In this document: positions 296 through 15,229 of the stretch, in pieces
Position numbering within the stretch: position 1 is the stretch's first letter
How the letters are laid out: every line of letters starts with the position of its first letter
IMG/VR virus record: IMGVR_UViG_3300001041_000009
Location: 1-64,000 of that record
Strand: one strand, 5' to 3'
Source of the DNA: a virus
Length of the DNA stretch: 64,000 nucleotides
Notes under the pieces: generated by a model
What the model was told of the DNA's origin: nothing
The model's database searches: none
Seen by the model: only the letters and a program-made list of their open reading frames with translations
Program-made: the position numbers and the translations under genes

Positions 296-1054
296 TTAAT
301 CAATTTTAAAATTAATCGATTCTAAATATTCTAAAACTTCTGGGTGTGGTTCTTTAATGCATGTAATACACCCCGGATCAATTTTAACTGCGAATAATTG
401 TACCATACAACTTGGATTTTTAAGAACTCTAATAATATCAGTATCATTTACCAGGGCGGCTAATTGAACTTCTTCAGACGGATTGGTTATTAATTGAATA
501 TTGAATGGATCTAAACCAATTGATAATGCCTGGATGAATAAACCAGGGTCTTTGATATATTGAATAGATGAACTATAACTTCCAATGGCAGTTATTTGAA
601 CCAATATATTAGGATTCTCTATATATTGAATACTATGACCGTTTCTCTTTACAGCAAGCAACTGAATTTCAACACTCGGATTCTTAATGTATTTAATAGT
701 ATTACCACAGCCTGTCACAGCATGTATTTGAACGTTTATATCGGGATTTCTAATATACTGAATATTATCCCAGTTCTGAGATACAGACTCCATCTGGGCT
801 TCAATACATGGCTTTCTAATATGGCTAATAGCCCAATCATCTTTAGTGACAGCAGCTAATTGCACCTCAACACTTGGATCGTTAATGAATGTAATGAATA
901 ATGGATCGATTTGTACCGCCTCCATATCATCCATGGATTCATTATATTCACAATCAGTGACAATATTATCTTCTTCATGGTGTAAAAAGGTTGTTGTTTT
1001 CACAACCTTTTTACACTCATTTGAATCTACAACATTAGTAACGATATTTTTCAT
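296..1054 (-). CDS. 24-residue-repeat solenoid protein, paralogue 1
   Basis: This 252-aa protein starts after AAGGAGG. About 55 N-terminal residues are unique, hydrophilic and Cys/His-containing (DSNECKKVV, TTFLHHEED). About eight units of the 24-residue repeat follow, e.g. YIKNPSVEIQLLAVKRNGHS, and it ends with the shared cap EPHPEVLEYL. Each unit predicts two short helices (EVQLAAV and xxIxYI), so an alpha-solenoid is likely. It resembles Pfam DUF4116 (D..VV.AAV.QNG.AL.Y), whose function is unknown. Compared with its relatives it has an added N-terminal extension and more diverged units. A perfect 15-bp inverted repeat lies inside the extension. A binding or scaffold role is inference only. 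Confidence 0.85.
   Translation of the reverse strand: MKNIVTNVVDSNECKKVVKTTTFLHHEEDNIVTDCEYNESMDDMEAVQIDPLFITFINDPSVEVQLAAVTKDDWAISHIRKPCIEAQMESVSQNWDNIQYIRNPDINVQIHAVTGCGNTIKYIKNPSVEIQLLAVKRNGHSIQYIENPNILVQITAIGSYSSSIQYIKDPGLFIQALSIGLDPFNIQLITNPSEEVQLAALVNDTDIIRVLKNPSCMVQLFAVKIDPGCITCIKEPHPEVLEYLESINFKID
980..1016 (-). repeat. Perfect hairpin inside a coding region
   Basis: A 15-bp perfect inverted repeat (GTGTAAAAAGGTTGT and its complement) with a 7-nt loop. It begins about 38 nt into the repeat-protein gene at 296-1054. It encodes KKVVKTTTFLHH, so it is both coding and able to fold in the mRNA. It could act as an early attenuator or translation block. Confidence 0.6.
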
Positions 1055-1074
1055 TTTATTATCCTCCTTAATTA

Positions 1075-1478
1075 TTAAAACTCAGTAATAACAACTTTCC
1101 CAGCTTCCATTAGTTGTACTAATTCTTTTGTGGGTGGTAACGTATCACCGTATGGTGATTTTTTAATAACACTAATAGTTATTGGATGTGGGGTTATTAA
1201 AAAATCAGATGGTTTAAACTGATCTTCATAATGTTGTGTACCATCATTTTCCGTTACAACACTTGGATATCTTACTGGTAATCCAAGTGTTGTCAATTCA
1301 TCAATAATAACATCGGTAACTTCTCCGATACCCCCATATCCCATTCCATATCCGGCTGTTCAGTCAATGTACGGATACAATCAAATACACTGTTATAGAT
1401 ATCATCATTCCGTTCAGCCATTCCATCTGTTAATTCAAGTTCTTCTTTAGGACTTTCAATGTTTATATTGATTAACAT
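1075..1478 (-). pseudogene. Small gene split by a frameshift at a G5 run
   Basis: Two overlapping frames lie on the minus strand. The first (1293-1478, 61 aa) has a good ribosome site (AGGAGG) before MLININIESPKEEL. The second (1075-1344, 89 aa, starting MGYGGIGEVTDVII) has none. Coding character passes from one to the other near the G5 run at 1331-1335, where a shift joins TEQPD to YGGIGEVTDVIIDEL and gives about 135 aa. It may be a broken gene, a phase-variable run, a programmed shift or a sequence error. The product is unrecognised; the C-terminal half contains KPSDFLITPHPITISVI. It lies between the XRE gene and a repeat-protein gene. Confidence 0.55.
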
Positions 1479-1503
1479 AAAATCCTCCTATTATAATCAT
1501 TAA

Positions 1504-1797
1504 TTACGTTTTTGATACAAATATTAGTTTCAAGTCAAGGACATCTGCAATTCTAAGAATAGTACTTAAACTTGGAGAAACATGTTGATTTTCAATCATT
1601 GAAATATTTTGTTGTCTAAATCCAAGTATTTCAGCCAAATTTCTTTGGGTAAGACTCTTTTCTTTTCGGCTCTTAACTAATTCACATATCAATTCATATT
1701 CGAATTTAATTAATTCGGGACTTTTTAAAGACCCATTGCGATATTTTTGATCGGTAATGTCAACATTACCGATCGTTATGAGTTGAATTCCACTCAA
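1504..1797 (-). CDS. XRE-family helix-turn-helix regulator (HigA-like)
   Basis: A 97-aa protein with a clear Cro/C1-type HTH at about residues 36-90. It runs ELVKSRKEKSLTQRNLAEIL, then GFRQQNISMIENQHVSPSLS and TILRIADVLDLKLIFV: helix 2 and recognition helix 3, the conserved S.IE, then P.L.TL..IA..L. Its length and N-terminal extension resemble HigA-type antitoxins. The start is TTG, chosen because AAGGAGTGATG lies at good spacing. No obvious toxin lies beside it; the small frameshifted gene downstream is the only candidate partner. The likely role is local transcription control of the accessory block. Confidence 0.85.
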   Translation of the reverse strand: MSGIQLITIGNVDITDQKYRNGSLKSPELIKFEYELICELVKSRKEKSLTQRNLAEILGFRQQNISMIENQHVSPSLSTILRIADVLDLKLIFVSKT

Positions 1798-1806
1798 TTT
1801 TAATCA

Positions 1807-2145
1807 TCACTCCTTTATCTCAATATGTATTTTACCTATTGCCATTGCTTCCTCTTTCATTCGTTTACGGACAACACCCTTATTAACCCCTTTATTCTCA
1901 CAGTACATTTTAATGTACATCAGAACTTTAGGATCTGGGTTTTGAATATGGACAATATTCTTAGCACTATGCCGTACAGCGATCATCTGTAATTTCCTAC
2001 CTGGATTCTTGACATATCTGATATTACTACCATTATGTCTTACTGCAGCTACCATTAGTTCATGACTAGGTTTGTTTGCCAATGCAATAGATAAGTCACC
2101 TGCGGCTGCTAATATAGCAGCAATTTTCTTTTGTAATTTAGTCAT
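1807..2145 (-). CDS. Short repeat-family protein, paralogue 2
   Basis: A 112-aa protein. The ATG at 2145 is preferred over the upstream in-frame GTG-type start because GGGGAGG, which is part of the upstream gene's last codons, sits before it. It holds only about two and a half repeat units (VAAVRHNGSNIRYVKNPG, IAVRHSAKNIVHIQNPDP) and the cap KVLMYIKMYC. A basic tail of about 30 residues (NKGVVRKRMKEEAMAIGK) follows. Its stop-start junction with the upstream gene (TAA-C-ATG) indicates translational coupling. It looks like a truncated family member fused to a charged tail. Function unknown. Confidence 0.75.
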   Translation of the reverse strand: MTKLQKKIAAILAAAGDLSIALANKPSHELMVAAVRHNGSNIRYVKNPGRKLQMIAVRHSAKNIVHIQNPDPKVLMYIKMYCENKGVNKGVVRKRMKEEAMAIGKIHIEIKE

Positions 2146-2146
2146 G

Positions 2147-2887
2147 TTAGTTAGCCTCCCCATTCATTAATTTTACCGTATCGATTATATATCGTAATTC
2201 ATTATTAATTGAAACAAGAATATCTCCTTTAATATATAGAACAGCATACGGATTCTGACAAATGGCAGCAAGTTGTATTTCTTTTGAGGGATTATCGATA
2301 TACTGAATAGCAAGTCCATCTTGTCGCACCGCAGCTAATTGAACCTCAGTATCTGGATTTTGAATATGCCTAATATTACAACCATCTTGACCCATACTGT
2401 ATAATTGAACATCTTTGTGTGGATTTATAATATGGGCTATAGTATTTTTATCTTTAGTGATAGCAAGTAACTGAATAGCCATACTAGGATTTTTAATATA
2501 TTTGATTATAAATCCATGCGAATTTATCGCAATCATCTGTAAAATTAAATCTGGATTTTTAATATGCTGAATTGCATAAGCATCTTCTTGAACTGCAAGT
2601 ATCTGTACAGCATATTGTGGGTCATTTATATACCGAATAGAATACCCATTCTGTCTAACTGCAACTATTTGAACATCTTCATCAGGATCTTCGATATACT
2701 GAATAGCAGGCCCACTTTTTCTTACAGCCTCTATTTGCACATCTTTATCGGGGTTTTTAATATACTGAATAATATCACCCGATTGTTTAACGGCAGCTAA
2801 TTGTATTTCTTTACAGGGGTCTTGAATTAACTTAATAGTTAAAGGCTCCTTTGTCACCATCTCTAATTGATGTTTTAATAAGTTCAT
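2147..2887 (-). CDS. 24-residue-repeat solenoid protein, paralogue 3
   Basis: A 246-aa protein. The start at 2887 (MNLLKHQLEMV) is chosen because AGAGGAGGAA precedes it; an in-frame extension upstream has no ribosome site. After the N-cap (EMVTKEPLTIKLIQDPCKE) come about eight very regular units such as AAVKQSGDIIQYIKNPDKDV and AVRQDGLAIQYIDNPSKE. The C-cap is unusual (YIKGDILVSINNELRYIID). It is the middle gene of a three-gene operon of repeat proteins, coupled on both sides by TAA-C-ATG junctions. Alpha-solenoid fold inferred; function unknown. Confidence 0.85.
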   Translation of the reverse strand: MNLLKHQLEMVTKEPLTIKLIQDPCKEIQLAAVKQSGDIIQYIKNPDKDVQIEAVRKSGPAIQYIEDPDEDVQIVAVRQNGYSIRYINDPQYAVQILAVQEDAYAIQHIKNPDLILQMIAINSHGFIIKYIKNPSMAIQLLAITKDKNTIAHIINPHKDVQLYSMGQDGCNIRHIQNPDTEVQLAAVRQDGLAIQYIDNPSKEIQLAAICQNPYAVLYIKGDILVSINNELRYIIDTVKLMNGEAN

Positions 2888-2888
2888 G

Positions 2889-3194
2889 TTAAATTCCTCC
2901 TCTTTCTCGTACATAATCTAATACTTTCACACAAGGATTTTCGATATATTTGATATACTTAATATTTTGCTTTACAGCAAGCATCTGAGCCTTTTTACAA
3001 GGGTTGTCAAACTGTCTAATATATTTACCACCCTTTAACTTAATGAGAGCCACCTGAGCTTTTTTACATGGATTTTCAATACGTTTAATATACTCATCAT
3101 TATTTGATTTAATAATTTCCATTTGTTTCTTCTTAGTGAAATGACCAAATAAAGCATTAAACATTTCCGATGCTATATCTACTTGTTTTTTCAT
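2889..3194 (-). CDS. Short repeat-family protein, paralogue 4
   Basis: A 101-aa protein with ribosome site GGGAGAAG. It has about 30 leading residues (IASEMFNALFGHFTKKKQME). Three variant units follow in which the usual NPxxEVQLAAV becomes NPCKKAQVALIKLKGGKYI, so the acidic and Gln positions are replaced by CKKAQ. The cap is NPCVKVLDYVRERGGI. The basic, Cys-bearing repeat surface differs sharply from the acidic surface of its neighbours and may bind a different partner (inference). It is the first gene of the three-gene operon downstream of the promoter at 3237-3249. Confidence 0.75.
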   Translation of the reverse strand: MKKQVDIASEMFNALFGHFTKKKQMEIIKSNNDEYIKRIENPCKKAQVALIKLKGGKYIRQFDNPCKKAQMLAVKQNIKYIKYIENPCVKVLDYVRERGGI

Positions 3195-3236
3195 TAATCA
3201 ATCTTCTCCCTTCTGTTTTATATGTAGTATACTATA

Positions 3237-3249
3237 ATAATATATAATT
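3237..3249 (-). promoter_or_regulatory. Phage promoter motif AATTATATATTAT
   Basis: A minus-strand copy of the recurring AAnTATATATTAT box, 43 nt before the ATG of the first gene of the repeat-protein operon (3194-1807). At least eleven such boxes sit at similar distances in this window. Confidence 0.6.
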
Positions 3250-3480
3250 TAAAATTATTATGACCTTTTACTTAACTGTTACCATCTTAATTAAATTATA
3301 AATTATTTGAATGGAACATAATAGTAATGAAATAATTTAATTACTTCATAAGGTTATAGATGACAAAAGCTGGACTTCTGCTCTATGATATCACTTTAAT
3401 GAATCCCGACATATTTGGGGGCTTGGTTCTTAAATTGAGGGTTGTTTACATACACTCGTATGAGAAATAGTACAAAAAAA
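3250..3480. other. Intergenic region, no gene seen
   Basis: The gap between the operon start and the terminator of the next cassette holds no ORF with a ribosome site, no tRNA and no long repeat. Part of it (3360-3450) is less AT-rich than its surroundings but shows no recognisable coding or RNA structure. Confidence 0.5.
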
Positions 3481-3512
3481 ATAAAGGAGTACCTTAATTG
3501 GTACTCCTTTAT
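3481..3512 (-). terminator. Hairpin terminator
   Basis: A 13-bp perfect stem (ATAAAGGAGTACC) with a 6-nt loop, immediately after the stop of the gene at 3514-3786. A T-rich run follows in the minus-strand direction. Confidence 0.8.
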
Positions 3513-3513
3513 T

Positions 3514-3786
3514 TTAACGTCTAAAATCCTTTAATATTTCAGACTCTATCTTATGCCAAATAATAGCGTTTGAGTTAATAGATGTTAACCAAGGCTCATC
3601 ATCACCAATAAGTGAATGCACCTCAAAGATCTCAATATCGCATTTGATCGAATTCTCACTATTTGATATTAAGATATACGAGTATTGAATTTCATTCACT
3701 TTGATTACACCCGAATAAATGACAAATCCCATTCCTCTGGAAACTAATCTAGTTGTATGATCTTTATTTGTTAAGTCTTTATCCAT
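3514..3786 (-). CDS. Hypothetical protein (90 aa)
   Basis: This begins 1 nt after the stop of the upstream gene (TAG-A-ATG), so translation is probably coupled. It is mainly beta-strand-like (GMGFVIYSGVIKVNEIQYSY, ILISNSENSIKCDIEIFEVH) and ends in a basic FRR. No family recognised. It is the last gene of a small-protein operon (4953 to 3514) that includes three Cys-rich proteins. Confidence 0.7.
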   Translation of the reverse strand: MDKDLTNKDHTTRLVSRGMGFVIYSGVIKVNEIQYSYILISNSENSIKCDIEIFEVHSLIGDDEPWLTSINSNAIIWHKIESEILKDFRR

Positions 3787-3787
3787 T

Positions 3788-4186
3788 CTAATAAAATCTC
3801 CTTTTCAAAACTCTCACATCTAACATTGATAAATCAACATTTTGGTGTGGGGTTGTAAAACCTTCTTCTTTACGAGTCGACATCCCTTGTTTAATTGAAA
3901 AACATAGAGCATATTCTCCGGCCTTTTCTAACCCTTTAAAGAGATTAGTTGGGGCCTTTACTGCCCCAAAAGACTCAACGATTTCCTTTGTGGTTGGATG
4001 CCCAATATAATGGGAAATTCCAGTTAGATCAGGAATTTCTGAGATGTTAATAGAATTGATTTCATAACAACCATCCAGTGGAATAATAGTTGTTGATAAG
4101 ATTGCAATAGGCATTCCATAAGCATCTTTACATGAACAAAATCCCGTGACATTCTTTTTTCCACAAAACATACAAGTGTTTTCCAT
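3788..4186 (-). CDS. Hypothetical protein with N-terminal zinc knuckle
   Basis: A 132-aa protein. The N-terminus has two Cys pairs (CMFCGKKNVTGFCSCKDAYG), a likely treble-clef or zinc-ribbon-like knuckle. A beta-rich domain of about 100 residues follows (AILSTTIIPLDGCYEINSIN) and it ends with LDVRVLKRRFY. No catalytic motif is visible. It has a good ribosome site (AAAGAGGTAAT) and lies upstream of and coupled to the 90-aa gene. Role unknown; nucleic-acid or protein binding is inference. Confidence 0.75.
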   Translation of the reverse strand: MENTCMFCGKKNVTGFCSCKDAYGMPIAILSTTIIPLDGCYEINSINISEIPDLTGISHYIGHPTTKEIVESFGAVKAPTNLFKGLEKAGEYALCFSIKQGMSTRKEEGFTTPHQNVDLSMLDVRVLKRRFY

Positions 4187-4650: not shown

Positions 4651-4953
4651 TTATACAGTATGCTTAAACTTACTGTGATAATACTCGCCAGCAGGGGAAA
4701 TTATAGTTAATTGGCAACCAATATTCCCCCATGAACCACTCCCCACTTCCCAACCTTTAGATTTGATGAACTTAATTGCATCTTGAATAAGATCGAAACA
4801 TGGATGTAATTTAATAGTTTCTGGACTTGGATTAAACGTATCATATGCGGCACATAGATAATCCTTTACTCTTTCACAATCTCCGGCGTATAAATGCTTT
4901 CTTAATTTAGAAATAAAACTCATACTGTTACCGAGTAAATTAAAATCATACAT
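4651..4953 (-). CDS. Hypothetical protein (100 aa)
   Basis: First gene of the small-protein operon, with ribosome site AAAGGGAGATG. The sequence suggests an alpha/beta domain: helical first half (SKLRKHLYAGDCERVKDYLC), then LIQDAIKFIKSKGWEVGSGS and a final hairpin (CQLTIISPAGEYYHSKFKHT). No known family recognised. A promoter box lies 44 nt upstream at 4997-5009. Confidence 0.7.
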   Translation of the reverse strand: MYDFNLLGNSMSFISKLRKHLYAGDCERVKDYLCAAYDTFNPSPETIKLHPCFDLIQDAIKFIKSKGWEVGSGSWGNIGCQLTIISPAGEYYHSKFKHTV

Positions 4954-4996: not shown

Positions 4997-5009
4997 ATAA
5001 TATATACTT
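4997..5009 (-). promoter_or_regulatory. Phage promoter motif AAGTATATATTAT
   Basis: A minus-strand copy of the recurring box, 44 nt before the ATG at 4953 and just after the stop of the upstream repeat-protein gene. Confidence 0.6.
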
Positions 5010-5012: not shown

Positions 5013-5645
5013 TTATCTAGCACATAATTTTTGTTGACAATATTCTATTACATCTGGATGAGGATCATAAATATATTTAATTACTCTTTTATCTTTATAT
5101 ACACACAATAACTGTATATCTCTATCAGGATTTTTAATATATTTAATATCAAATATATTATTTTGTATAGCTGCAAATTGCATATTTATATCTGGATTTG
5201 TAATATGTTGTATATTTGAACTATCTCTTTGTACTGCTAATAGTTGAATGTATTTATCCGGTTTATTGATAAATCGTATTGATGCACTATTCTTATTTAT
5301 AGATGCCAATTGGATATCTGTATCAGGATTATCAATATATCTAATAGAGCTACCATCGTTAACAGCAAATAATTGCATTTCTTTAGTTGGTTTATCAATA
5401 TAATATATAGCCCTACCATCATCCTTAACAGCAGTTAATTGAACATCTAAGCTTGGATTATCGATATACTTGATATTAATACCATTGTTAATTACTGCAG
5501 CCATTTGAATTTCATTATCTGGATTTCTAATATAATGAATAGCATACCCATTTTGTTTTACAGCAATTAGTTGCAACTCTTTACTTGGATTATCAATAAA
5601 TAAAATGTTTAAAGGATCTTTTAACACCATCTCTAAATCGGTCAT
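5013..5645 (-). CDS. 24-residue-repeat solenoid protein, paralogue 5
   Basis: A 210-aa protein. The ATG at 5645 (MTDLEMVLKDPLNILFIDNP) is chosen because AGAGGAGAG precedes it and because MTDLEMV is the family's standard N-cap; an open upstream extension has neither. About seven units follow, e.g. AVKQNGYAIHYIRNPDNEI and AVINNGINIKYIDNPSLDV. The C-cap is DPHPDVIEYCQQKL. It is a monocistronic cassette with its own promoter box at 5685-5697. Solenoid fold likely, function unknown. Confidence 0.85.
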   Translation of the reverse strand: MTDLEMVLKDPLNILFIDNPSKELQLIAVKQNGYAIHYIRNPDNEIQMAAVINNGINIKYIDNPSLDVQLTAVKDDGRAIYYIDKPTKEMQLFAVNDGSSIRYIDNPDTDIQLASINKNSASIRFINKPDKYIQLLAVQRDSSNIQHITNPDINMQFAAIQNNIFDIKYIKNPDRDIQLLCVYKDKRVIKYIYDPHPDVIEYCQQKLCAR

Positions 5646-5684: not shown

Positions 5685-5697
5685 ATAATATATACTT
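5685..5697 (-). promoter_or_regulatory. Phage promoter motif AAGTATATATTAT
   Basis: The recurring box, 40 nt before the ATG at 5645. Confidence 0.6.
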
Positions 5698-5730
5698 GAT
5701 AGAGGAGAATATACTAATTGATTAAAAATA

Positions 5731-5770
5731 AATAATACCAAATAGAATTTAAATTCTATTTGGTATTATT
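5731..5770 (-). terminator. Terminator, 40-bp perfect palindrome
   Basis: A perfect 20+20 inverted repeat downstream of the tail-fibre gene at 5822, followed by a T-rich run on the minus strand. It separates the tail genes from the next repeat-protein cassette. Confidence 0.8.
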
Positions 5771-5821
5771 TTAATTAATATATTGAGTATCAACTATGAC
5801 GTATAATGCGTCAACTACGAC

Positions 5822-7846
5822 CTACTGAATATCAAATAAACTTACCATTCTATTTGATATATCAAGATTTGCGTAAGGCAACAAGTCAAATTTTCTAAGA
5901 TATACACTAGTCGAACTATTTCCAGTTCCAAGCAAGTAATAATATCCATTGTATGCTTCAATGTTTGGATAGACAGATTGCATCGTTCCTTGAACAACGA
6001 TACTGCTATTACCAAGATTGGAAGGGTCTATTTTTAATATTTCAGTTCTTTGTCTTGCACATGTGCTATGAACCAAATAAATATTAGTACCATCTGTGAA
6101 AAAATATCCTTTTGACCCAGCATCTTGAATCTTAATTTGTTCCACTATCGCCTTAGACGTAAGATTGATTTTAGATAAGAGTATTTTAGTATTGAATGGT
6201 TCTGTGCTATTTGAAATTTGCCTTAATGCGTAATACAGATAACCATCTTTGCAGAAGCAAGAACCCTCCCAGTTAGCTTGCGAATCAACGAATTGAGGTT
6301 CAAGCCAATATTCAAAGGTTAAGAAATCTAGTGTCCTGATCAAAATACTGTTTGGAATCAAACTATTGAACAGTAAGCCACAATAATAATAACCATCAGT
6401 GTGTTTACTCGCCTGTGCCCCAACATTAGGAAAGTGGTCTACACTTGGAAGCGTGAATACATTTAAGCTAATATTATCAGTTGTAAAATCAAAGGTCGCC
6501 GCCTCGTAAGTAAACTGACAAATACCTGCGGCTCCGAAAGTGCTAGTTGCTACATCAAACACTTTACGCAACATATACCATTTGTTGTCACTAAGTTTCG
6601 CGCAAAACGTAACTGTTATATCCCCATCAATGATAATTGGTGTAGCGCCGCCAACACCTGAGATAATTGTAAAACCGCCAACCGCATCCCCATACTTACC
6701 AACATCATACCTACCAAGTAATGTCCAACTATCCAAATCAATTATTTCCAAAATAGAATATGCGTCTGTATACGTTGGGCTATCTCCTGTTCCAACATCA
6801 TTAGTAAGCATACAGCAATAGGCTAAACCATTTACTGCATCAATCGCAAGTTTGGAATCATGGGAAAAATTAGTCGTCATTTTATAGCGGACATCAAATG
6901 TATCCTTATCAAATTTCACACTGTTTAGATAAGTTGTCATTTCATCGACAACCGATTGTGTACCTACATTCCATCTATTAGCAGGGTCTTGGTATGTTAA
7001 AGACTTGTCTGAAAATGTAACGCAATTTGTTTCAACATACTTTTCGGTTGCAAGTCTGTCATAAATGTACTTATACACAGACAAATTTGCTAATATATTG
7101 AATTCTAAGTATTTACAGTTTTCTGGTATAGTAATTTCAACATCCCATACACCGTCACCATAACATTCCCCCCCAATGAAGATAGAATCTTCATCCAAGT
7201 AAATGACATGGTACAAATCAGCCCTGCTACCTGTAACCTGAATATGGAATTTATCTCCCGCCTTAACTTCGATAGGTTCTGTGTAATAGTAGTATAATAG
7301 GCTGGTTAAAAGAATTAATGTATGTCCAAGGTCGCTATTCATAGCAGACCATCTTGCACCGCTTATTGCCGGTACAGTTTGTAATACATAATCACCCGTT
7401 AAGTGTGTCCAATCTTTTTCACCACCAATATTTGTCTTTAATTTACCAATTTGCCCTCTGACTGCTTCCCCTGCACTTCCATAGGTTATACCATCGGCCC
7501 CAATTTTCAGATCTATTAATTCTGCACTACCACTCGCTACACCATAAACAAGTAATACATAATCACCCGCTACTGCTGTATATCCTGTCGCTACTGGTGT
7601 AACGCTTGCAAGATTAATTTGTCCTGTAGTTGCTCCACTCTCTACTATTAATAATACTCCAGTTATCCCTGCTGTAGATTTTTCGTAAAAAGAAGCATTG
7701 GTGACCGCGACTAAATTATTAATCCTTGCCTTCTCAATATCTAATGCTATTTGCGGTGCTTTATCAGCTAACTGTGCCGTAGTTTCTGCCTTATACGCAG
7801 CAAGATCTGCTTTTACAGTACCCGGTAATTTAAAATAACCTTCCAT
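5822..7846 (-). CDS. Tail-fibre or receptor-binding-type protein
   Basis: A 674-aa, Gly/Thr/Ser-rich beta protein. Residues 1-60 look like a helical attachment or trimerisation segment (YFKLPGTVKADLAAYKAETT). Beta-sandwich-like sequence follows (IVESGATTGQINLASVTPVA). The C-terminal two thirds has regular YYYCGLL, LYYALRQI and YYLLGTG blades separated by aromatic strands, which suits a beta-propeller such as those of phage adsorption proteins. It starts directly after the stop of the preceding gene (TAA then ATG), so the two are co-translated. Its position inside the accessory block, away from the other virion genes, suggests a separately exchanged host-range module. Assignment rests on composition and context. 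Confidence 0.65.
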   Translation of the reverse strand: MEGYFKLPGTVKADLAAYKAETTAQLADKAPQIALDIEKARINNLVAVTNASFYEKSTAGITGVLLIVESGATTGQINLASVTPVATGYTAVAGDYVLLVYGVASGSAELIDLKIGADGITYGSAGEAVRGQIGKLKTNIGGEKDWTHLTGDYVLQTVPAISGARWSAMNSDLGHTLILLTSLLYYYYTEPIEVKAGDKFHIQVTGSRADLYHVIYLDEDSIFIGGECYGDGVWDVEITIPENCKYLEFNILANLSVYKYIYDRLATEKYVETNCVTFSDKSLTYQDPANRWNVGTQSVVDEMTTYLNSVKFDKDTFDVRYKMTTNFSHDSKLAIDAVNGLAYCCMLTNDVGTGDSPTYTDAYSILEIIDLDSWTLLGRYDVGKYGDAVGGFTIISGVGGATPIIIDGDITVTFCAKLSDNKWYMLRKVFDVATSTFGAAGICQFTYEAATFDFTTDNISLNVFTLPSVDHFPNVGAQASKHTDGYYYCGLLFNSLIPNSILIRTLDFLTFEYWLEPQFVDSQANWEGSCFCKDGYLYYALRQISNSTEPFNTKILLSKINLTSKAIVEQIKIQDAGSKGYFFTDGTNIYLVHSTCARQRTEILKIDPSNLGNSSIVVQGTMQSVYPNIEAYNGYYYLLGTGNSSTSVYLRKFDLLPYANLDISNRMVSLFDIQ

Positions 7847-8317
7847 TTATCTCACCCCCACAATTTGAACAATTGGGGTTCCTGTAGAAATAACATGGAT
7901 TGTCGTTCCCTGCATAGATATACCATATCCTGTTTCAGCAGGTAATAAAGTACTTGTTGTACCATTAACAGATGCAACCCCATCGACCTCATAATAAGCA
8001 TCACCTGGTCCAACATTAAGAATATCAAATCTTTTACATACACCTGAAAATGTAAATAATGTATCAGTATTAGCTACTAATGTATATCGTTTAACTTCAT
8101 TAACAGTATTGCCTGCAATAAATGCATTAATAGTAGTTTGTATACCTTTCATAACATTATAAATACTAGATAACCAACCTCTTGAACCAGTACCACCAGA
8201 TTCCTGAGTTACTCCAGTAGCATCAGTTCCATCTAATACAGCTTGTGCTGACCAAGTACCATCACCATTATCTTTTACCTTAAGGTTAACACCACCATAA
8301 TTAACGAATTTATCCAT
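7847..8317 (-). CDS. Small tail or fibre-associated structural protein
   Basis: A 156-aa beta-rich protein with KDNGDGTWSAQAVLDGTDAT near the start. Its C-terminal half ends in an adhesin-like sandwich (YTLVANTDTLFTFSGVCKRF, HVISTGTPIVQIVGV). The ribosome site is AAAGGAGTTG. It is translationally coupled to the large fibre gene, and the pair looks like a fibre and its base or connector. No enzymatic motif. Assignment is by composition and coupling. Confidence 0.6.
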   Translation of the reverse strand: MDKFVNYGGVNLKVKDNGDGTWSAQAVLDGTDATGVTQESGGTGSRGWLSSIYNVMKGIQTTINAFIAGNTVNEVKRYTLVANTDTLFTFSGVCKRFDILNVGPGDAYYEVDGVASVNGTTSTLLPAETGYGISMQGTTIHVISTGTPIVQIVGVR

Positions 8318-8413: not shown

Positions 8414-9361
8414 TTAATCCGCGTCATATTCAATTTTAGCTATATTGAATTTCTCTCTAAGTTCACTAACATATTGATCAGCTTCAGCATTTGTTAGTAT
8501 ATCATTTTTGGATAACAGAGAATTAACTTTACCATTACCATTGAAGACAATCACATAAATAGTTTTATTTCTACAGTTAACTAGTACACTAAGTTTTTCT
8601 TTAATATATATACCCGAGGAATCAATTTGTTTAGCTAGAAGCCTCTTAGTATAATCTATAACCTTTCTACTAGGATCATAGATATATCGAATTGCATCAG
8701 GGCATATATCAACAGCAGCTAATTGAATTTCCTCACTAGGATTAGCAATGCACCTAATGAGACTATAATCTAGATTTAATGCTTTAAGAATCACTGTTTT
8801 AAAAGGTTTCTTAATATGCATTATAACTATAGGATTTTTTTCAATAGCTGCTAGTTGGACTCGCTCCGATGGATTGAATAAATATTTAATTACTGTACCA
8901 TTTTCCCTTACTGCTGTTAATTGTACATCTTCAGATGGATTATTGATAAACTGTATCATCTTCCCATCTTGTTTAAGAGCAGTTATCTGTACTACCTCTA
9001 GCGGATTGTGAATATATTGTAACGCTTTAGCCTTAATAGAGTTCTTAACTGCTGTCATTTGTAATAATTCGGACGGATGCTCAATAAAGCATATCGCCTG
9101 TCCATTTTGTTTGATAGCAGTCAGTTGAACTTTTTCAGACGGATCTTTAATAAACTGCAATAACATTCCATCTTGTTTTACGGCAGCCAATTGGACTTTT
9201 TCTGTGGTATTATGCATAAATTTAATGTCCCAGGCACAGTTTAAAACTGATTCTAGTTGTGCTTGTTCACTTTGTTTCTCCAATGTAATCGTTTGATTAA
9301 TAATGGAGTTGATCATATTTAATTTTTCTAAAGGAATATCTTTCCGGGTATAGCCTTCCAT
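8414..9361 (-). CDS. 24-residue-repeat solenoid protein, paralogue 6
   Basis: A 315-aa protein. The start at 9361 (MEGYTRKDIPLEKLNMINSI) is preferred because AAGGAG lies 12 nt upstream; the earlier in-frame ATG at 9382 has none. It carries about nine units, e.g. AAVKQDGMLLQFIKDPSEKV and AVRENGTVIKYLFNPSERV, then the cap DPSRKVIDYTKRLL. Uniquely it adds a C-terminal domain of about 80 residues (SGIYIKEKLSVLVNCRNKTI, YVIVFNGNGKVNSLLS, VSELREKFNIAKIEYDAD) that looks alpha/beta. This is the only family member with a clear extra C-terminal domain, so it is a good entry point for function. Confidence 0.85.
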   Translation of the reverse strand: MEGYTRKDIPLEKLNMINSIINQTITLEKQSEQAQLESVLNCAWDIKFMHNTTEKVQLAAVKQDGMLLQFIKDPSEKVQLTAIKQNGQAICFIEHPSELLQMTAVKNSIKAKALQYIHNPLEVVQITALKQDGKMIQFINNPSEDVQLTAVRENGTVIKYLFNPSERVQLAAIEKNPIVIMHIKKPFKTVILKALNLDYSLIRCIANPSEEIQLAAVDICPDAIRYIYDPSRKVIDYTKRLLAKQIDSSGIYIKEKLSVLVNCRNKTIYVIVFNGNGKVNSLLSKNDILTNAEADQYVSELREKFNIAKIEYDAD

Positions 9362-9402
9362 TTTGTTTGTTAGCTCCTTCATTTTTTATGTATTACATTA
9401 TT

Positions 9403-9415
9403 ATAATATATAAAC
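9403..9415 (-). promoter_or_regulatory. Phage promoter motif variant TTTATATATTAT
   Basis: The recurring box with GTT in place of the leading AAn, about 42 nt before the chosen ATG at 9361. Confidence 0.5.
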
Positions 9416-9420
9416 AAAAA

Positions 9421-9452
9421 AAGTAAGAATACGAATTATCGTATTCTTACTT
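9421..9452 (-). terminator. Hairpin terminator
   Basis: Perfect 12-bp stem (AAGTAAGAATAC) with an 8-nt loop, ending the cassette whose stop is at 9466. Confidence 0.75.
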
Positions 9453-9465
9453 TTAGTTAATTAAG

Positions 9466-10179
9466 TTATCTGAAAACTATAGAGTGTTTTAACTGTTGTT
9501 TTACATATTCCATTACCTCAGCATCAGGATTGATAATATATCTAATACAATGTATATCAGTCTTAACAGCAGCCATTTGCACTTCTTTACTAGGATGGGC
9601 AAATCTTTTAATAGTAGAACAATCCTTTTGTACAGCTAATATGGCTACCTCCATACTGAATACTTTAATGAACTCCATAGCTCGTGCATCCTGTTTTACG
9701 GCAGCCATTTGGATATTTTTAGCAGGTTGTCTAATATACTTAATAGCACAACCACTTTGCTCTACAGCAGTAAGTTGAAGTTCTTTACTTGGATCTGAAA
9801 TATATCGAATGGCGTAACCATTCTGTTGAACAGCAATAGTTTGTAACTGAATAGAAGGATTTTTAATGAACTTAATAGAAGTCCCTTCTTCAAGTACAGC
9901 CGCCAATTGAACCTCTTCACATGGGTCTGGTATGTAACGAATAGCTACTCCATTCTGCTCAACTGCAGCTATCTGAACTTCTTTACATGGATTATTGATA
10001 TAACGAATAAGTCTTCCATCTGTCCGTACGACTTTTAATTGGAGATTAACACTTGGATTTTCAATGAACTGGATAACATAACCTGCTGTGGTTACGGCAG
10101 CTAGTTTAACCTCTTCACTCGGATCTTTAATGGTTAAGATGTTTAAAGGATCTTTGATTACTAATAATGTATTATTCAT
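9466..10179 (-). CDS. 24-residue-repeat solenoid protein, paralogue 7
   Basis: A 237-aa protein starting after AGGAGGAA. N-cap LLVIKDPLNILTIKDPSEEV, about eight units (e.g. AAVEQNGVAIRYIPDPCEEV, AVEQSGCAIKYIRQPAKNI) and C-cap NPDAEVMEYVKQQLK. One unit is strongly diverged (AMEFIKVFSMEVAILAVQKD). It is the last gene of a three-gene run of paralogues (11299 to 9466) separated by only 14-32 nt. Function unknown. Confidence 0.85.
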   Translation of the reverse strand: MNNTLLVIKDPLNILTIKDPSEEVKLAAVTTAGYVIQFIENPSVNLQLKVVRTDGRLIRYINNPCKEVQIAAVEQNGVAIRYIPDPCEEVQLAAVLEEGTSIKFIKNPSIQLQTIAVQQNGYAIRYISDPSKELQLTAVEQSGCAIKYIRQPAKNIQMAAVKQDARAMEFIKVFSMEVAILAVQKDCSTIKRFAHPSKEVQMAAVKTDIHCIRYIINPDAEVMEYVKQQLKHSIVFR

Positions 10180-10211: not shown

Positions 10212-10733
10212 TTAATATCCCCTCTTTTTTAATTCACTTCTAGCGTATTCTACTACACTAGGATCAGGTTTATCAATAACACATAACGCGAAAGGACAAT
10301 TTTTAATTGCCGCTAATTGTACATCAATACTAGGTGTTTTAATAAATCTGATTACCATACCGAAACTTTCCACAGCAGTTAATTGAACCTCTTCACTTGG
10401 ATTTCCAATACTTCTAATGATATCTGGATTTAATCGCACCATTTGTAAATCTATTGATTCTTCCATAATACCATCATAAATATCTATTTCCATATCTAAA
10501 TCAATGTATTCATCACTTAATATAATAGGACATTTTGCTGTGGATAAAAGCTCTTCAAATTCTTGCTTGGTAATAATAGTAGATGGTCTATATGATTTAT
10601 GTATAGAACTAGGTCTACTTTTATGAATATAGTAAGACTCACTCCTTTCAATTTTCGTGGCGACCAAATCTGCCAGTTCTACAACCCTATATGTTTTGAA
10701 AAATGTTATGAAACGAAATTTATTTCTATCCAT
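10212..10733 (-). CDS. Repeat-family protein with a novel N-terminal domain, paralogue 8
   Basis: A 173-aa protein starting after AAGGGGTG. The first 85 residues are not repeats: FRFITFFKTYRVVELADLVA, a Ser/Tyr/His-rich stretch (SESYYIHKSRPSSIHKSYRP), TKQEFEELLSTAKCPIILSD and an acidic linker. Only three repeat units and the cap KPDPSVVEYARSELKKRGY follow. It appears to be an unrelated domain fused to a short solenoid. No known family recognised for the N-terminal part. Confidence 0.75.
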   Translation of the reverse strand: MDRNKFRFITFFKTYRVVELADLVATKIERSESYYIHKSRPSSIHKSYRPSTIITKQEFEELLSTAKCPIILSDEYIDLDMEIDIYDGIMEESIDLQMVRLNPDIIRSIGNPSEEVQLTAVESFGMVIRFIKTPSIDVQLAAIKNCPFALCVIDKPDPSVVEYARSELKKRGY

Positions 10734-10747
10734 TTATAAACACCCCT

Positions 10748-11337: not shown

Positions 11338-11350
11338 ATAATATATAGTT
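11338..11350 (-). promoter_or_regulatory. Phage promoter motif AACTATATATTAT
   Basis: The recurring box. The surrounding CTATTCAACTATATATTATA also precedes paralogue 11, so the promoter has been copied together with its gene. Confidence 0.65.
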
Positions 11351-11376: not shown

Positions 11377-11410
11377 AAATAAAGAATACGAATTAATGTA
11401 TTCTTTATTT
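11377..11410 (-). terminator. Hairpin terminator
   Basis: Stem of 13 bp (AAATAAAGAATAC) just after the stop at 11422. Confidence 0.75.
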
Positions 11411-11421
11411 AATGATACTAA

Positions 11422-11895
11422 TTATTTATAGTTAAACGTCCCATCAAATAGCCAACTATTTTGTTGTATAATTACCATCTGAACATCATCGTCTGGGTCT
11501 TCAATAATTTGGATAGACAATTCTTTGTTTTTCACAAACCCTAGTAATATATCCCTATTGGGATTTTTAACATGATTCATACTATATCCATTAGAGCTCA
11601 TATGTATTAAATCCAAATCTTTATGTGGATCTATAATATGATAAAAATTTGTATCGACATCCATTTCAAATATGAAGAGCTGAGTCTTATTGCTACCATC
11701 CTTAATAAACCCCACAAAGAATTTAGATCTATGGTCATACCATAGTGCTGCTAATTTTATATCACTATCAATATTGTCAGTAAATTGAATACTGACAGCA
11801 TATTTTTGAATAGCCGCCTTTTGTAAAGTAATATCCGGCTTATCAACTAATAGGATATTTATTGGGTGTATTTTTATAAGCTCCAGATCAGTCAT
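11422..11895 (-). CDS. Divergent repeat-family protein, paralogue 10
   Basis: A 157-aa protein with the family N-cap (MTDLELIKIHPINILLVDKP) and about five strongly diverged units (e.g. VKNPNRDILLGFVKNKELSI, IIEDPDDDVQMVIIQQNSW). It ends without the usual cap (LFDGTFNYK). It may be a decaying or truncated copy. Its ATG overlaps the stop of the small upstream gene by 4 nt (ATGA), so it is co-translated with it. Confidence 0.75.
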   Translation of the reverse strand: MTDLELIKIHPINILLVDKPDITLQKAAIQKYAVSIQFTDNIDSDIKLAALWYDHRSKFFVGFIKDGSNKTQLFIFEMDVDTNFYHIIDPHKDLDLIHMSSNGYSMNHVKNPNRDILLGFVKNKELSIQIIEDPDDDVQMVIIQQNSWLFDGTFNYK

Positions 11896-12074
11896 TTAAC
11901 ATCACCCCATTGTTGCATAAATGTATAATCTCGTGGATCTAATTCATCACCGACCTGGACACTAAAATGGCCACATTCAATATTAATATCTTTTAGATAT
12001 ATGAATATTCCTGGGTTTTTAATACGTAGCTGGCACAAACAATCGTCAATTATTAATTTCACATCATCGTCCAC
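11892..12074 (-). CDS. Hypothetical acidic protein (60 aa)
   Basis: This starts after AAAGGGGATG (MDDDVKLIIDDCLCQLRIKN) and ends overlapping the next gene. It contains CGHFSVQVGDELDPRDYTF and has no repeats. Its overlap with a diverged repeat protein suggests a paired function. No family recognised. A promoter box lies at 12104-12116. Confidence 0.65.
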   Translation of the reverse strand: MDDDVKLIIDDCLCQLRIKNPGIFIYLKDINIECGHFSVQVGDELDPRDYTFMQQWGDVK

Positions 12075-12103
12075 TATATTACATCCCCTTTCTATATACT
12101 AAT

Positions 12104-12116
12104 ATAATATATACTT
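12104..12116 (-). promoter_or_regulatory. Phage promoter motif AAGTATATATTAT
   Basis: The recurring box 30 nt before the ATG at 12074, directly downstream of the terminator of the next cassette. Confidence 0.6.
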
Positions 12117-12120
12117 AAAA

Positions 12121-12154
12121 AAATAAAGAATACGAATTATCATATTCTTTATTT
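12121..12154 (-). terminator. Hairpin terminator
   Basis: AAATAAAGAATA paired with TATTCTTTATTT after the stop at 12161. Near-identical to the terminator at 12827-12860. Confidence 0.75.
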
Positions 12155-12160
12155 CATAGA

Positions 12161-12751
12161 TTACAAATTCTTTAATAGTTCTTGTTTCACGTACTCTAAT
12201 ACATCAGGATGGGGATTATTGATATATCTGATTGAGTTGATATCATGCTCAACGGAATACAATTGAACTTTTGGATGTGGATCTTTGATATTTTTAATGG
12301 TATTTGTAAAATATTCTCGTCGAAATTTCATAATCTCTTTATATTCGTCTTCAAAAGGGGATTTGAATTGATAGCTATCTTGTTTGAATGCCATTATTTG
12401 TATATGGGGTTCTGGATTTTCAATACACTGAATAGCCCGGCCCCCTCCACCATGTATAATAGCCGCTCTTTGAACAGGCATATTTGGATCTTTAATGAAG
12501 CGAATACTCATAGAATTACTATATACAGCAATTAATTGCATTTCAAAATCAGGATCTGCAATAAACTGAATTGCATCACCGTTATTTCTAACAGCACACT
12601 CTTGGACTTCACGGTTAGGGTTGATGATAAATTGTAACAATAACCCGTCTTTATTTACTGTAGCTAACTGCACATCAACATCTGGATTCTCAATAAGTAT
12701 AATGTTTAAAGGATTCTTCTGCACCATTTCTAAATCTGTTAATTTTTCCAT
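12161..12751 (-). CDS. 24-residue-repeat solenoid protein, paralogue 11
   Basis: A 196-aa protein with N-cap MEKLTDLEMVQKNPLNIILI, about six units and C-cap NPHPDVLEYVKQELLKNL. Between units lies an insertion of about 25 residues without the repeat pattern (SYQFKSPFEDEYKEIMKFRR). The last 18 residues and the downstream terminator are almost identical to those of paralogue 12, showing recent duplication or gene conversion of the 3' end. Ribosome site AGGAGGAA. Confidence 0.85.
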   Translation of the reverse strand: MEKLTDLEMVQKNPLNIILIENPDVDVQLATVNKDGLLLQFIINPNREVQECAVRNNGDAIQFIADPDFEMQLIAVYSNSMSIRFIKDPNMPVQRAAIIHGGGGRAIQCIENPEPHIQIMAFKQDSYQFKSPFEDEYKEIMKFRREYFTNTIKNIKDPHPKVQLYSVEHDINSIRYINNPHPDVLEYVKQELLKNL

Positions 12752-12789
12752 TAATAAATTCCTCCTAAATTTTATTTCTTTACTAATAT

Positions 12790-12802
12790 ATAATATATAG
12801 TT
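12790..12802 (-). promoter_or_regulatory. Phage promoter motif AACTATATATTAT
   Basis: The recurring box 39 nt before the ATG at 12751. The flanking TTCAACTATATATTATAT and the leader are shared with paralogues 9 and 14. Confidence 0.65.
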
Positions 12803-12826
12803 GAATAGATTATTAGATTTAATAAA

Positions 12827-12860
12827 AAATAAAGAGTATGAATTATCATATTCTTTATTT
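12827..12860 (-). terminator. Hairpin terminator
   Basis: Imperfect stem (AAATAAAGAGTATGA with TCATATTCTTTATTT) after the stop at 12867. Confidence 0.75.
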
Positions 12861-12866
12861 CATAGA

Positions 12867-13583
12867 TTACAAATTCTTTAATAGTTCTTGTTTTACATAC
12901 TCTAATACATCAGGATGGGGATTGAATAAATGTGTAATAAAATTAATACTCTGTTTTACAGCGATCATTTGAATCTCAACTGATGGATTTTCAATACATC
13001 GAATGACATTGCCATCTTGTTGAACTGCAATAAGTTTTAATGCATCTGAAGGTTCCCCAAAGCAACTGATGGCAAATCCATTTTGTTGTAGAGCCATAAC
13101 GCAAATGTCATCATCAGGATGAACGATCCATCGAATGGCATAACCTGATTCTTGTACTGCGGCTATTTGTACATCCTTATCTGGGTTTTTGATATATTCA
13201 ATAACATCCCCATCATTACTCACCGCAGCCAACTGGACCTTTTTACTTGGATCTTTAATGAATTGAAGGGCGTATGCATTTTCTTTGACCGCAAGTAATT
13301 GTAATTCTTCACTCGGGTCTTTAATATATTGGATAGCAAATCCGTCAATACTTACTGCTGTTGATTTCACGTCCATGTCTGGATTTTTAATATATTTGAT
13401 TATATCGTCACTATCAAATTTACTACTAGATAATGCTTTTATTTGCACATCTTTATCAGGACTCTCAATAAACTGAATATTACTACCCTCATTTGTAACG
13501 ACTACCATTTGAATCTCCTTAGTTGGGTTTTTAATAAGTAAAATGTTTAAAGGATTCTTCTGCACCATTTCTAAATCAGTCAT
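12867..13583 (-). CDS. 24-residue-repeat solenoid protein, paralogue 12
   Basis: A 238-aa protein. The ATG at 13583 follows AAAGGAAGTG and overlaps the TGA of the upstream gene (ATGA). N-cap MTDLEMVQKNPLNILLIKNP, about eight units (AAVQESGYAIRWIVHPDD, AVQQDGNVIRCIENPSVEI) and C-cap identical to paralogue 11. One unit has a short Asp/Ser insertion (SSKFDSDDIIKYIKNPDMDV). Co-translated with paralogue 13. Confidence 0.85.
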   Translation of the reverse strand: MTDLEMVQKNPLNILLIKNPTKEIQMVVVTNEGSNIQFIESPDKDVQIKALSSSKFDSDDIIKYIKNPDMDVKSTAVSIDGFAIQYIKDPSEELQLLAVKENAYALQFIKDPSKKVQLAAVSNDGDVIEYIKNPDKDVQIAAVQESGYAIRWIVHPDDDICVMALQQNGFAISCFGEPSDALKLIAVQQDGNVIRCIENPSVEIQMIAVKQSINFITHLFNPHPDVLEYVKQELLKNL

Positions 13584-14458
13584 CAATTAACACTTCCTTT
13601 ATCGTCATTTAATTTATCACGAAGTTTTTGTTTTACATATTCTAATACTTCTGAGTGCGGAGTATTAATATATTTAATATTATCAATATCAATTTCAACA
13701 GCCTTCAGTTGAATACACATATCTGGATTTTCAATATATCTAATAAAACTAACATTCATGGAAATTACAACTTCTTGTATCTCTATACTTGGATCTTTAA
13801 TAAATTGAATAGTTGGCGCATCTGATATAACTGCAGCTTCCTGGATATCCTCATCGGGGTTTTTGATATATTGAATGTTACGCCCATAATATACCACAGC
13901 GATTAATTGGACCTCTTTAGTCGGTTCTTTAATAAATTTAATAGAAATTGGCCTCTTTGTAACAGCAACTAACTGAACCTCCTCACTGGGATTGTCTATA
14001 TATTTGATATTGCGACTTTTTCGTTTAACTGCCTCTAGTTGAATTGTTACATCGGGATTATTGATATATTTAAAATACTTCCCGTTAGGGGAATGATTCA
14101 ATACTTGATATTGTGCAGATAATGCTGGATTTTTTATTAAACTGATATAGGTAGGATTAATTTTGACTAGGATTTGTTGAATTTCCTCATGTGGATCTGA
14201 TATAAATTTAATATAAGCCCAAGATTGATTTATAGCGATTAACTGGACTTCAATATCTGGGTTCATAATAAATTTAATATTACGACCAGTTTCAATAACA
14301 GCAGCGCGTTGAACATCCTTATCTGGGTTTTTAATAAACCGGATATATTTTCCATTATGATTGACTGCAATTAATTGAACCTCTTTACTAGGATTCTCAA
14401 TAAACATGATATTTAAAGGATTTTTCTGCATCATTTCTAAATCTGTTAATTTTTCCAT
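13583..14458 (-). CDS. 24-residue-repeat solenoid protein, paralogue 13
   Basis: At 291 aa this is among the longest of the family. The N-cap (MEKLTDLEMMQKNPLNIMFI) and its leader match paralogue 11 almost exactly. About ten units follow, many with QLIAV or QEAAV, and one breaks the pattern (NPALSAQYQVLNHSPNGKYF). C-cap TPHSEVLEYVKQKLRDK, then DDKGSVN. The ATG follows AGGAGGAA. It overlaps paralogue 12 by 1-4 nt, giving a two-gene operon. Confidence 0.85.
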   Translation of the reverse strand: MEKLTDLEMMQKNPLNIMFIENPSKEVQLIAVNHNGKYIRFIKNPDKDVQRAAVIETGRNIKFIMNPDIEVQLIAINQSWAYIKFISDPHEEIQQILVKINPTYISLIKNPALSAQYQVLNHSPNGKYFKYINNPDVTIQLEAVKRKSRNIKYIDNPSEEVQLVAVTKRPISIKFIKEPTKEVQLIAVVYYGRNIQYIKNPDEDIQEAAVISDAPTIQFIKDPSIEIQEVVISMNVSFIRYIENPDMCIQLKAVEIDIDNIKYINTPHSEVLEYVKQKLRDKLNDDKGSVN

Positions 14459-14491
14459 TAATAAATTCCTCCTAATATTTTATTCTTTTAT

Positions 14492-15229
14492 TTAATGTTT
14501 CTTTAGATCAGTCACTGTAGATACGTCTAATATGAGATTGCAACTAATATGTTTATTATGATTCACATTATTAGCATTTGTAATTCTTTCCCTTTCTTTC
14601 ATTAATTCTAATAATACATATTCTGTAACTTCAGAGTCTGGATTATCAATTAATGTAAGCGATCTAAGATTTTGTTTTACAGCTATTAACTGTAAATCTT
14701 TCGATGGGTTTTTAATAAATTGGATAGCATCACCATCTTTTTCCAATGCTAATATTTGTACATCAATATCAGGGTTATTGATATATTTAATAGCACATCC
14801 ACTTTCATTAACAGCTATTAATTGCAGACCTTTATCCGGACTAGCTATAAACTTAATAGCATATCCATTTTGTTTAAGCGCTACACTTTGTATAATTCTA
14901 GTTGGTTCTTTAATATACTGAAGTGCAAGACCATGGGCTGAAACTGCAGCGCATTGGATCGGTTTACTTGGATCTATAATTTGTTCAATAGCAGTAGGAT
15001 CATACTTTACTGCTAATAACTGCACTTCAGTATCGGGATTTTTAATATACTTAAGAGCTTCACAATTTTGTCTTACAGCAGCTAATTTGATTTCATTATC
15101 TGGATCATCAATGTATCTGATCATAAGGCCATTTTTTTTGACAGTTGCTAATTGAACTTCTTTACTGGGAGGATTCTGGAGAATTAAAATATTTAGGTGA
15201 TTCATCTTCACTATTTCTAAATCTGTCAT
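14492..15229 (-). CDS. 24-residue-repeat solenoid protein, paralogue 14
   Basis: A 245-aa protein with N-cap MTDLEIVKMNHLNILILQNP, about eight regular units (AAVRQNCEALKYIKNPDTEV, AVNESGCAIKYINNPDIDV) and cap NPDSEVTEYVLLELMK. A unique tail of about 35 residues follows (RITNANNVNHNKHISCNLIL). Ribosome site AGGAGGAA. Closest family member to the polymerase gene, which is transcribed divergently from it. Confidence 0.85.
   Translation of the reverse strand: MTDLEIVKMNHLNILILQNPPSKEVQLATVKKNGLMIRYIDDPDNEIKLAAVRQNCEALKYIKNPDTEVQLLAVKYDPTAIEQIIDPSKPIQCAAVSAHGLALQYIKEPTRIIQSVALKQNGYAIKFIASPDKGLQLIAVNESGCAIKYINNPDIDVQILALEKDGDAIQFIKNPSKDLQLIAVKQNLRSLTLIDNPDSEVTEYVLLELMKERERITNANNVNHNKHISCNLILDVSTVTDLKKH

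What the first reader, a model, noticed from the sequence alone, without database searches (positions are those of the whole stretch)
296..15229. Fourteen paralogous 24-residue-repeat solenoids in 15 kb
Fourteen genes share an N-cap (MTDLEMVQKNPLNI...), 2-10 units of NPxxEVQLAAVxQNGxxIxYI and a C-cap (NPHPDVLEYVKQ). Units differ mostly at a few surface positions, some genes carry extra domains (paralogues 1, 6, 8) and some have altered charge (paralogue 4). A phage spending about 10 kb on this suggests a diversified recognition or decoy system, for example against host defences. The function is unknown; the repeat resembles DUF4116.
Basis: partly seen in the sequence, partly recalled or inferred. 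Interest (0 to 1): 0.88.

Follow-up and report, generated by a model that had tools for sequence, protein, structure and literature searches.

The report
Phage array of early solenoid-protein cassettes
A large phage distantly related to Bacillus phage AR9 carries fourteen tandem genes for modular, rod-like binding proteins made of 22-residue repeats; promoter signals place them among the first genes switched on in infection, so they probably grip host (or other infection-time) proteins, but no target is known.

Summary
Fourteen intact minus-strand ORFs at 296-15229 (a fifteenth lies at 98963 of the same 118-kb record) belong to Pfam DUF4116. The repeat period is 22 residues, not 24. AlphaFold2 gives a regular alpha-solenoid (pLDDT 97). 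The phage is a distant relative of AR9/PBS1.

New evidence: almost every DUF4116 transcription unit starts with the core of the AR9 early (virion-RNA-polymerase) promoter, TATATATTAT-6N-R. Virion genes, including a fibre-like gene pair lying inside the cluster, carry the AR9 late motif AACA-6N-TR instead. A virion-component role is therefore unlikely. Cassette ends (promoter, N-cap, C-cap, 3' flank) are 91-96% identical between some copies whose bodies are only about 55-60% identical, which suggests body exchange or end homogenisation. The repeat scaffold is under purifying selection, and residue 16 is the most variable position here and in most other viral DUF4116 arrays. Tandem 22-residue arrays recur in unrelated phages.

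Best reading: early, intracellular, diversified protein-binding adaptors or decoys aimed mainly at host proteins. Targets and anti-defence action are inferred, not shown. The early assignment is weaker in one relative: only 1 of 4 genes in G001 has a perfect early core.

The parts
296..1054 (-). DUF4116 paralogue 1, about 8 units, with an N-terminal extension of about 37 aa
1807..2163 (-). DUF4116 paralogue 2, 2 units, very basic (pI 10.3)
2147..2914 (-). DUF4116 paralogue 3, 9 units, closest to consensus
2889..3194 (-). DUF4116 paralogue 4, 1-2 units, basic (pI 9.8)
5013..5645 (-). DUF4116 paralogue 5, 7-8 units (start refined to 5645)
8414..9382 (-). DUF4116 paralogue 6, 7-8 units plus a C-terminal extension of about 87 aa with no known relative
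9466..10179 (-). DUF4116 paralogue 7, 8-9 units; AlphaFold2 model pLDDT 97
10212..10733 (-). DUF4116 paralogue 8, 2-3 units with an N-terminal extension of about 88 aa
10748..11299 (-). DUF4116 paralogue 9, 6 units
11422..11895 (-). DUF4116 paralogue 10, strongly diverged, C-cap lost, frame intact
12161..12751 (-). DUF4116 paralogue 11; some ends 91-97% identical in DNA to those of paralogues 12-14, body about 55%
12867..13583 (-). DUF4116 paralogue 12, 8 units
13583..14458 (-). DUF4116 paralogue 13, 10 units
14492..15229 (-). DUF4116 paralogue 14, 8 units
15268..15277 (-). AR9-like early promoter core TATATATTAT-6N-G, 48 nt before paralogue 14 (unit 14-13-12)
   Evidence: consensus from PMC5312081
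12790..12799 (-). early promoter core, 48 nt before paralogue 11
12104..12113 (-). early promoter core before ORF 11892-12074 and paralogue 10
11338..11347 (-). early promoter core before paralogues 9-8-7
9403..9412 (-). early promoter core before paralogue 6
5685..5694 (-). early promoter core before paralogue 5
4997..5006 (-). early promoter core before ORF 4651-4953 (non-DUF4116 unit in the cluster)
3237..3246 (-). early promoter core before paralogues 4-3-2 (and possibly on to 1)
9419..9454 (-). terminator-like hairpin between paralogues 7 and 6
5730..5771 (-). terminator-like hairpin after the fibre-like gene
3478..3515 (-). terminator-like hairpin at the end of ORF 3514-3786 (downstream of the unit that starts at 5006)
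1504..1797 (-). XRE/HTH_3-type regulator in the same gene run as paralogues 4-3-2-1
   Evidence: HTH_3, E 1.6e-11
5822..8317 (-). two fibre-like genes (no family hit; similar pair at record 77213-79802) inside the cluster, with late motif AACATAGTAATA at -40 and no early core: internal control

Best explanation
The locus is a multigene array of early-expressed cassettes. Each cassette is laid out as early promoter (one per unit of one to three genes), ribosome-binding site, N-cap, n x 22-residue units, C-cap and 3' flank or terminator, and encodes an intracellular alpha-solenoid of variable length. Each solenoid most likely works as a protein-binding adaptor or decoy. The buried scaffold is fixed; specificity would come from the second short helix and its junction (positions 12, 13, 16, 19, 22, above all 16), repeated along the rod. 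The array diversifies by gene duplication, unit gain and loss, and exchange of bodies between conserved cassette ends. Because transcription is predicted to start with the polymerase injected from the virion, the targets are most likely host proteins met at the start of infection (takeover or defence components). Shown: the repeats, the copies, intact frames, the promoter motifs and the end/body contrast. Predicted: the fold and early timing. Inferred: binding, host targets, any anti-defence effect.
For: Fold: AlphaFold2 pLDDT 97, two helices per 22 aa. Early timing: AR9 early consensus AAATATATATTAT-6N-G (PMC5312081); the core TATATATTAT occurs 26 times in the record against about 7 expected (Markov), and 8 times upstream of cluster units on the minus strand where about 0.45 are expected (Poisson P about 3e-8). 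7/15 DUF4116 ORFs have it directly upstream against 8/99 ORFs outside the cluster (Fisher P 6e-4); most others sit in a run behind one. The AR9 late motif precedes 32/98 other ORFs against 13/113 opposite-strand controls, including genes hitting PHROG virion structural families, but only 2/15 DUF4116 ORFs. Selection: pN/pS about 0.02-0.3 at scaffold positions (2, 7, 10, 11, 18, 21) and about 1.05-1.1 at position 16; position 16 is the most variable in 99.95% of gene-level bootstraps and in the pooled units of other genomes. Exchange: ends 91-96% identical over 100 bp against bodies of about 55-60%. Recurrence: several to many copies, often in tandem, in G001, G003, G004, G005 and SCTP-2. Binding-module precedent: structural matches to giant-virus DUF4116 proteins, some annotated F-box or kinase.
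Against: No target, no expression data and no defence-family match. In the related phage G001 only one of four DUF4116 genes has a perfect early core. The early motif is transferred from AR9 across RNA polymerase subunits that are only about 30% identical. No position shows pN/pS clearly above 1 and synonymous sites are near saturation, so positive selection is not proven. End homogenisation could be ordinary gene conversion. The F-box and kinase labels are database annotations of structural neighbours, not tested here.
Confidence: 0.5

Rival explanations
1. The solenoids bind other phage proteins (for example they scaffold the RNA polymerases, a phage nucleus or a replication compartment) rather than host proteins.
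For: The array abuts an RNA polymerase beta gene in the window and in G001. Early timing fits an organising role as well.
Against: The arrays also occur in viruses without a detectable match to this polymerase subunit (G003-G005, SCTP-2, Atu_ph07), and G006 lacks the array on the upstream side of its polymerase gene. Diversification across 14 copies is not expected for one fixed internal partner.
Confidence: 0.17
2. Non-adaptive or weakly adaptive expansion: a recombination-prone repeat gene that multiplies and decays with little function for most copies.
For: Some copies look eroded (11422-11895 lost its C-cap; G006 has an apparently frameshifted copy at about 91.1-91.4 kb). Repeats recombine easily.
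Against: All 14 window frames are intact, scaffold codons are strongly conserved, and promoters and ribosome-binding sites are kept for the units.
Confidence: 0.15
3. They are virion or fibre-associated structural proteins or chaperones of the fibre genes in the cluster.
For: A fibre-like gene pair lies inside the cluster (5822-8317).
Against: The fibre pair carries a late motif and no early core, the opposite of the DUF4116 units. The similar pair at 77213-79802 has no DUF4116 neighbour. Fourteen divergent copies do not look like one component.
Confidence: 0.08
4. Modular nucleic-acid readers (one residue per repeat, as in TALE or PUF proteins) that act as regulators.
For: One hypervariable residue per short helical repeat; two small copies are very basic.
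Against: Most copies are acidic or near neutral; residue 16 takes all chemical classes, not a small code set.
Confidence: 0.1

Closest known systems
DUF4116 (Pfam PF13475)
   Same: Profile matches above the gathering score; alpha-solenoid prediction agrees with the published trRosetta model (PMC8078820).
   Different: 22-residue period in the viral members measured against 24/25 in the bacterial proteins sampled; tandem multigene cassettes with early-type promoters are not described for the family (only two papers in the library mention it, neither with a function).
DUF4116 proteins of giant eukaryotic viruses (Klosneuvirus, Hokovirus, Marseillevirus LCMAC201) and of jumbo phages Atu_ph07 and SCTP-2
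   Same: Same fold (Foldseek E down to 1e-9) and several copies per genome.
   Different: Giant-virus copies can be labelled F-box or protein kinase; no such domain in the window. The phage copies are scattered in SCTP-2 and Atu_ph07 but tightly clustered here.
Poxvirus/giant-virus ankyrin-repeat multigene families (from general knowledge)
   Same: Works like: many diversified repeat proteins used as host-protein adaptors.
   Different: Unrelated repeat, no F-box or PRANC domain found, and the function is not tested here.
Leucine-rich repeat variant (LRV, 1lrv)
   Same: Weak profile similarity (E 0.024); short helical repeats.
   Different: 24-residue repeat (general knowledge); no significant Foldseek match in the PDB.

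Membership tests
DUF4116 (PF13475) | Match above the Pfam gathering score | tested here: met
   Nine paralogues, 31.7-69.8 bits against 24.9
DUF4116 (PF13475) | Repeat period of 24-25 residues (two per 49-position model); typical of sampled bacterial members rather than a curated definition | tested here: not met
   22 residues in 121/132 spacings; sampled bacterial proteins are 24/25; the profile aligns with a gap of about 3 residues. Filed as a 22-residue variant of the family because the curated score is met
DUF4116 (PF13475) | Alpha-solenoid fold | tested here: met
   AlphaFold2 pLDDT 97, regular helix pairs
AR9-type early (virion RNAP) genes | Promoter TATATATTAT-6N-G/A before the transcription unit | tested here: met
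   8 sites before cluster units; A instead of G at +1 in about half
AR9-type early (virion RNAP) genes | Transcripts present at 5 min and independent of protein synthesis | not testable with these tools
   no RNA data
Anti-defence proteins | Shown inhibition of, or binding to, a defence component | not testable with these tools
   no experiment; PADLOC models cover defence, not counter-defence
ANK/F-box-type viral adaptor families | Ubiquitin-ligase recruiting domain | tested here: not met
   no F-box or PRANC match in the window proteins scanned
HEAT/ARM repeats | Match above the curated score | tested here: inconclusive
   HEAT below cut-off in all; Arm marginally above in one protein (21.7 against 20.6)
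Diversity-generating retroelement targets | Reverse transcriptase and template/variable repeat pair | not tested
   no dedicated search made

The most novel reading that the evidence does not exclude
A phage-encoded, recombinable repertoire of repeat receptors with one hypervariable specificity residue per 22-residue unit, deployed from the injected polymerase at the start of infection to neutralise a changing set of host defence proteins.
Probability: 0.15. Interest if true: 0.9.

Novelty: new variant of a known kind. Interest (0 to 1): 0.6.

Why it matters
DUF4116 is widespread in giant viruses and jumbo phages, yet the open library holds no functional study. This array gives timing evidence (early, not structural), points to a likely specificity residue and shows a cassette layout. 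That makes the function directly testable, and it could reveal a new class of infection-time binding repertoire.

Tried and rejected
The search for related loci with the 14-member alignment failed (no conserved 7-10 column stretch); single-protein scans found only G001 in the viral contigs, so a degenerate DNA pattern was used. Foldseek against the PDB gave nothing at E<=0.001. The C-terminal extension of paralogue 6 has no phage relative and its single-sequence model is poor (pLDDT 53), so no fold claim is made. NCBIfam matches are far below cut-offs. Sigma-70-type promoter scans found fewer sites than shuffles, so host-type promoters were dropped in favour of the AR9 motif. No close relative of this phage was found, so within-species selection on single copies could not be tested.
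Full report
Observation. The window is part of a 118,479-bp IMG/VR virus record. Fourteen minus-strand ORFs between 296 and 15229 encode DUF4116 repeat proteins, and a fifteenth lies at 98963-99601 (+). The unit consensus is NPSKEVQLAAVKQNGYAIQYIK, 22 residues long: 121 of 132 neighbouring unit spacings, over this record and the related phage G001, are exactly 22. Nine paralogues were scanned with Pfam and all exceed the DUF4116 cut-off. The frames are intact.

Host genome. The neighbour at 15375 is an RNA polymerase beta subunit of the AR9/PBS1 type (about 30% identity; PHROG RNA polymerase beta). IMG/VR holds two further relatives with both features: G001 (IMGVR_UViG_3300017565_000002; polymerase 39% identical) and G006 (IMGVR_UViG_3300000169_000002; 32%). 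The search for the last and first bases of G001 in its other end shows that its first and last 123 bp are shared, so it is probably circular (about 215.7 kb); its contig ends break inside one long DUF4116 gene. G001 carries four such genes, two of them beside the polymerase gene. G006 carries two intact copies and an apparently frameshifted one, not on the upstream side of its polymerase gene.

Fold. AlphaFold2 with the 14-member alignment gives a regular helix-pair solenoid (unit positions 4-13 and 15-20), pLDDT 97, pTM 0.85. Foldseek finds no PDB match at E<=0.001 but finds giant-virus and jumbo-phage DUF4116 proteins, including proteins labelled F-box (Marseillevirus LCMAC201, E 1e-8, TM 0.87) and protein kinase (Sylvanvirus). 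A published contact-based model also makes DUF4116 an alpha-solenoid (PMC8078820). Only two papers in the library name DUF4116 and neither gives a function.

Timing. In AR9, early genes transcribed by the injected virion polymerase have AAATATATATTAT-6N-G, and late genes have AACA-6N-TA/G (PMC5312081). In this record the core TATATATTAT occurs 26 times against about 7 expected from a Markov model. Eight sites lie 30-53 nt upstream of transcription units in the cluster: 15277, 12799, 12113, 11347, 9412, 5694, 5006 and 3246, all on the minus strand. Chance would give 0.45 there. A further site precedes the 15th paralogue (98916). Directly upstream cores are found for 7 of 15 DUF4116 ORFs and 8 of 99 ORFs outside the cluster (P 6e-4). 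The late motif precedes 32 of 98 other ORFs, against 13 of 113 on the opposite strand; these include 39406 and 47822 (PHROG virion structural families) and both fibre-like gene pairs, but only 2 of 15 DUF4116 ORFs, near the background rate. The fibre-like pair inside the cluster therefore acts as an internal control: late motif at -40 and no early core. Limits: G001 has a perfect early core before only one of its four genes, and the +1 base is A in about half of the window sites.

Cassette structure and evolution. Between some paralogues the ends are nearly identical in DNA while the bodies are not. Bodies in their best register are about 55-60% identical, with synonymous differences near saturation. 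This points to exchange of bodies or homogenisation of ends by recombination. A second virus (G005, no match to this polymerase) has five tandem genes with its own repeated N-cap (MTDLQKVQQ) and C-cap (KMSxHLS).

Selection. Nonsynonymous change relative to synonymous change is very low at scaffold positions (2, 7, 10, 11, 18, 21: mostly 0.02-0.3) and reaches about 1.05-1.1 only at position 16. Position 16 has the highest entropy in the window (4.0 bits; top in 99.95% of bootstraps, whether units or genes are resampled) and in 135 units pooled from other genomes; G005 and G001 are exceptions in which other surface positions are as variable or more so. This marks a probable specificity site but does not prove positive selection.

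Distribution. Only 7 of 50,697 phage records match, yet they and the IMG/VR hits are diverse: Atu_ph07, SCTP-2, Pseudoalteromonas podovirus Slicky01, podovirus ctwe8250, Lactobacillus phage Lbab1, and G003-G006. The viral repeats that could be measured have period 22; the bacterial proteins from the Campylobacterales-order sample have 24 or 25, except two exported-looking 22-residue proteins (L033, L034).

Mechanism. The best-supported reading is a set of early, intracellular binding rods that differ in length and surface and act as adaptors or decoys. Host proteins are the likeliest targets because of timing, copy number and variability, but partner identity and any anti-defence effect are inference. 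Rivals are weighed in their own section.

Verdict. A real, ordered and little-studied system: a 22-residue variant of DUF4116 organised as early recombining cassettes. New variant of a known kind; interest 0.6.

Noticed in passing
window 15375-21467: The RNA polymerase beta gene is split: matches to the G001 protein lie at 16410-18017, 18328-18654 and 20745-21467, with Rfam group I introns at 18015-18261 and 19377-19627, and a third intron further on at 22796-23049.
   Followed up: partly
window 44881-46113 and record 80805-82037: Two IS605 OrfB/TnpB-like genes (the first matches OrfB_IS605 and Cas12f1-like TNB; the second shares its start by sequence).
   Followed up: partly
window 5822-8317 and record 77213-79802: Duplicated two-gene fibre-like module (75% DNA identity over about 210 bp); no phage relative found for the 674-aa protein.
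   Followed up: partly
window 5711-5790: An 80-bp imperfect palindrome (85% self-complementary) between the fibre-like gene and paralogue 5, overlapping a terminator-like hairpin.
   Followed up: no
window 3788-4186: ORF with a cysteine-rich start and a weak, below cut-off match to STIV B116-like.
   Followed up: no
L033 7950-8477 and L034 7971-8513: Two Campylobacterales MAGs encode a 22-residue-type DUF4116 protein with an apparent signal peptide, suggesting an exported cellular version.
   Followed up: no
L019/L020 (G001 ends): The first and last 123 bp of IMG/VR record G001 appear shared, so it is probably a complete circular or permuted genome of about 215.7 kb.
   Followed up: partly
L054 7833-8342: In Lactobacillus phage Lbab1 the DUF4116 gene is the last gene before the genome end, after a run of small hypothetical genes.
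   Followed up: no
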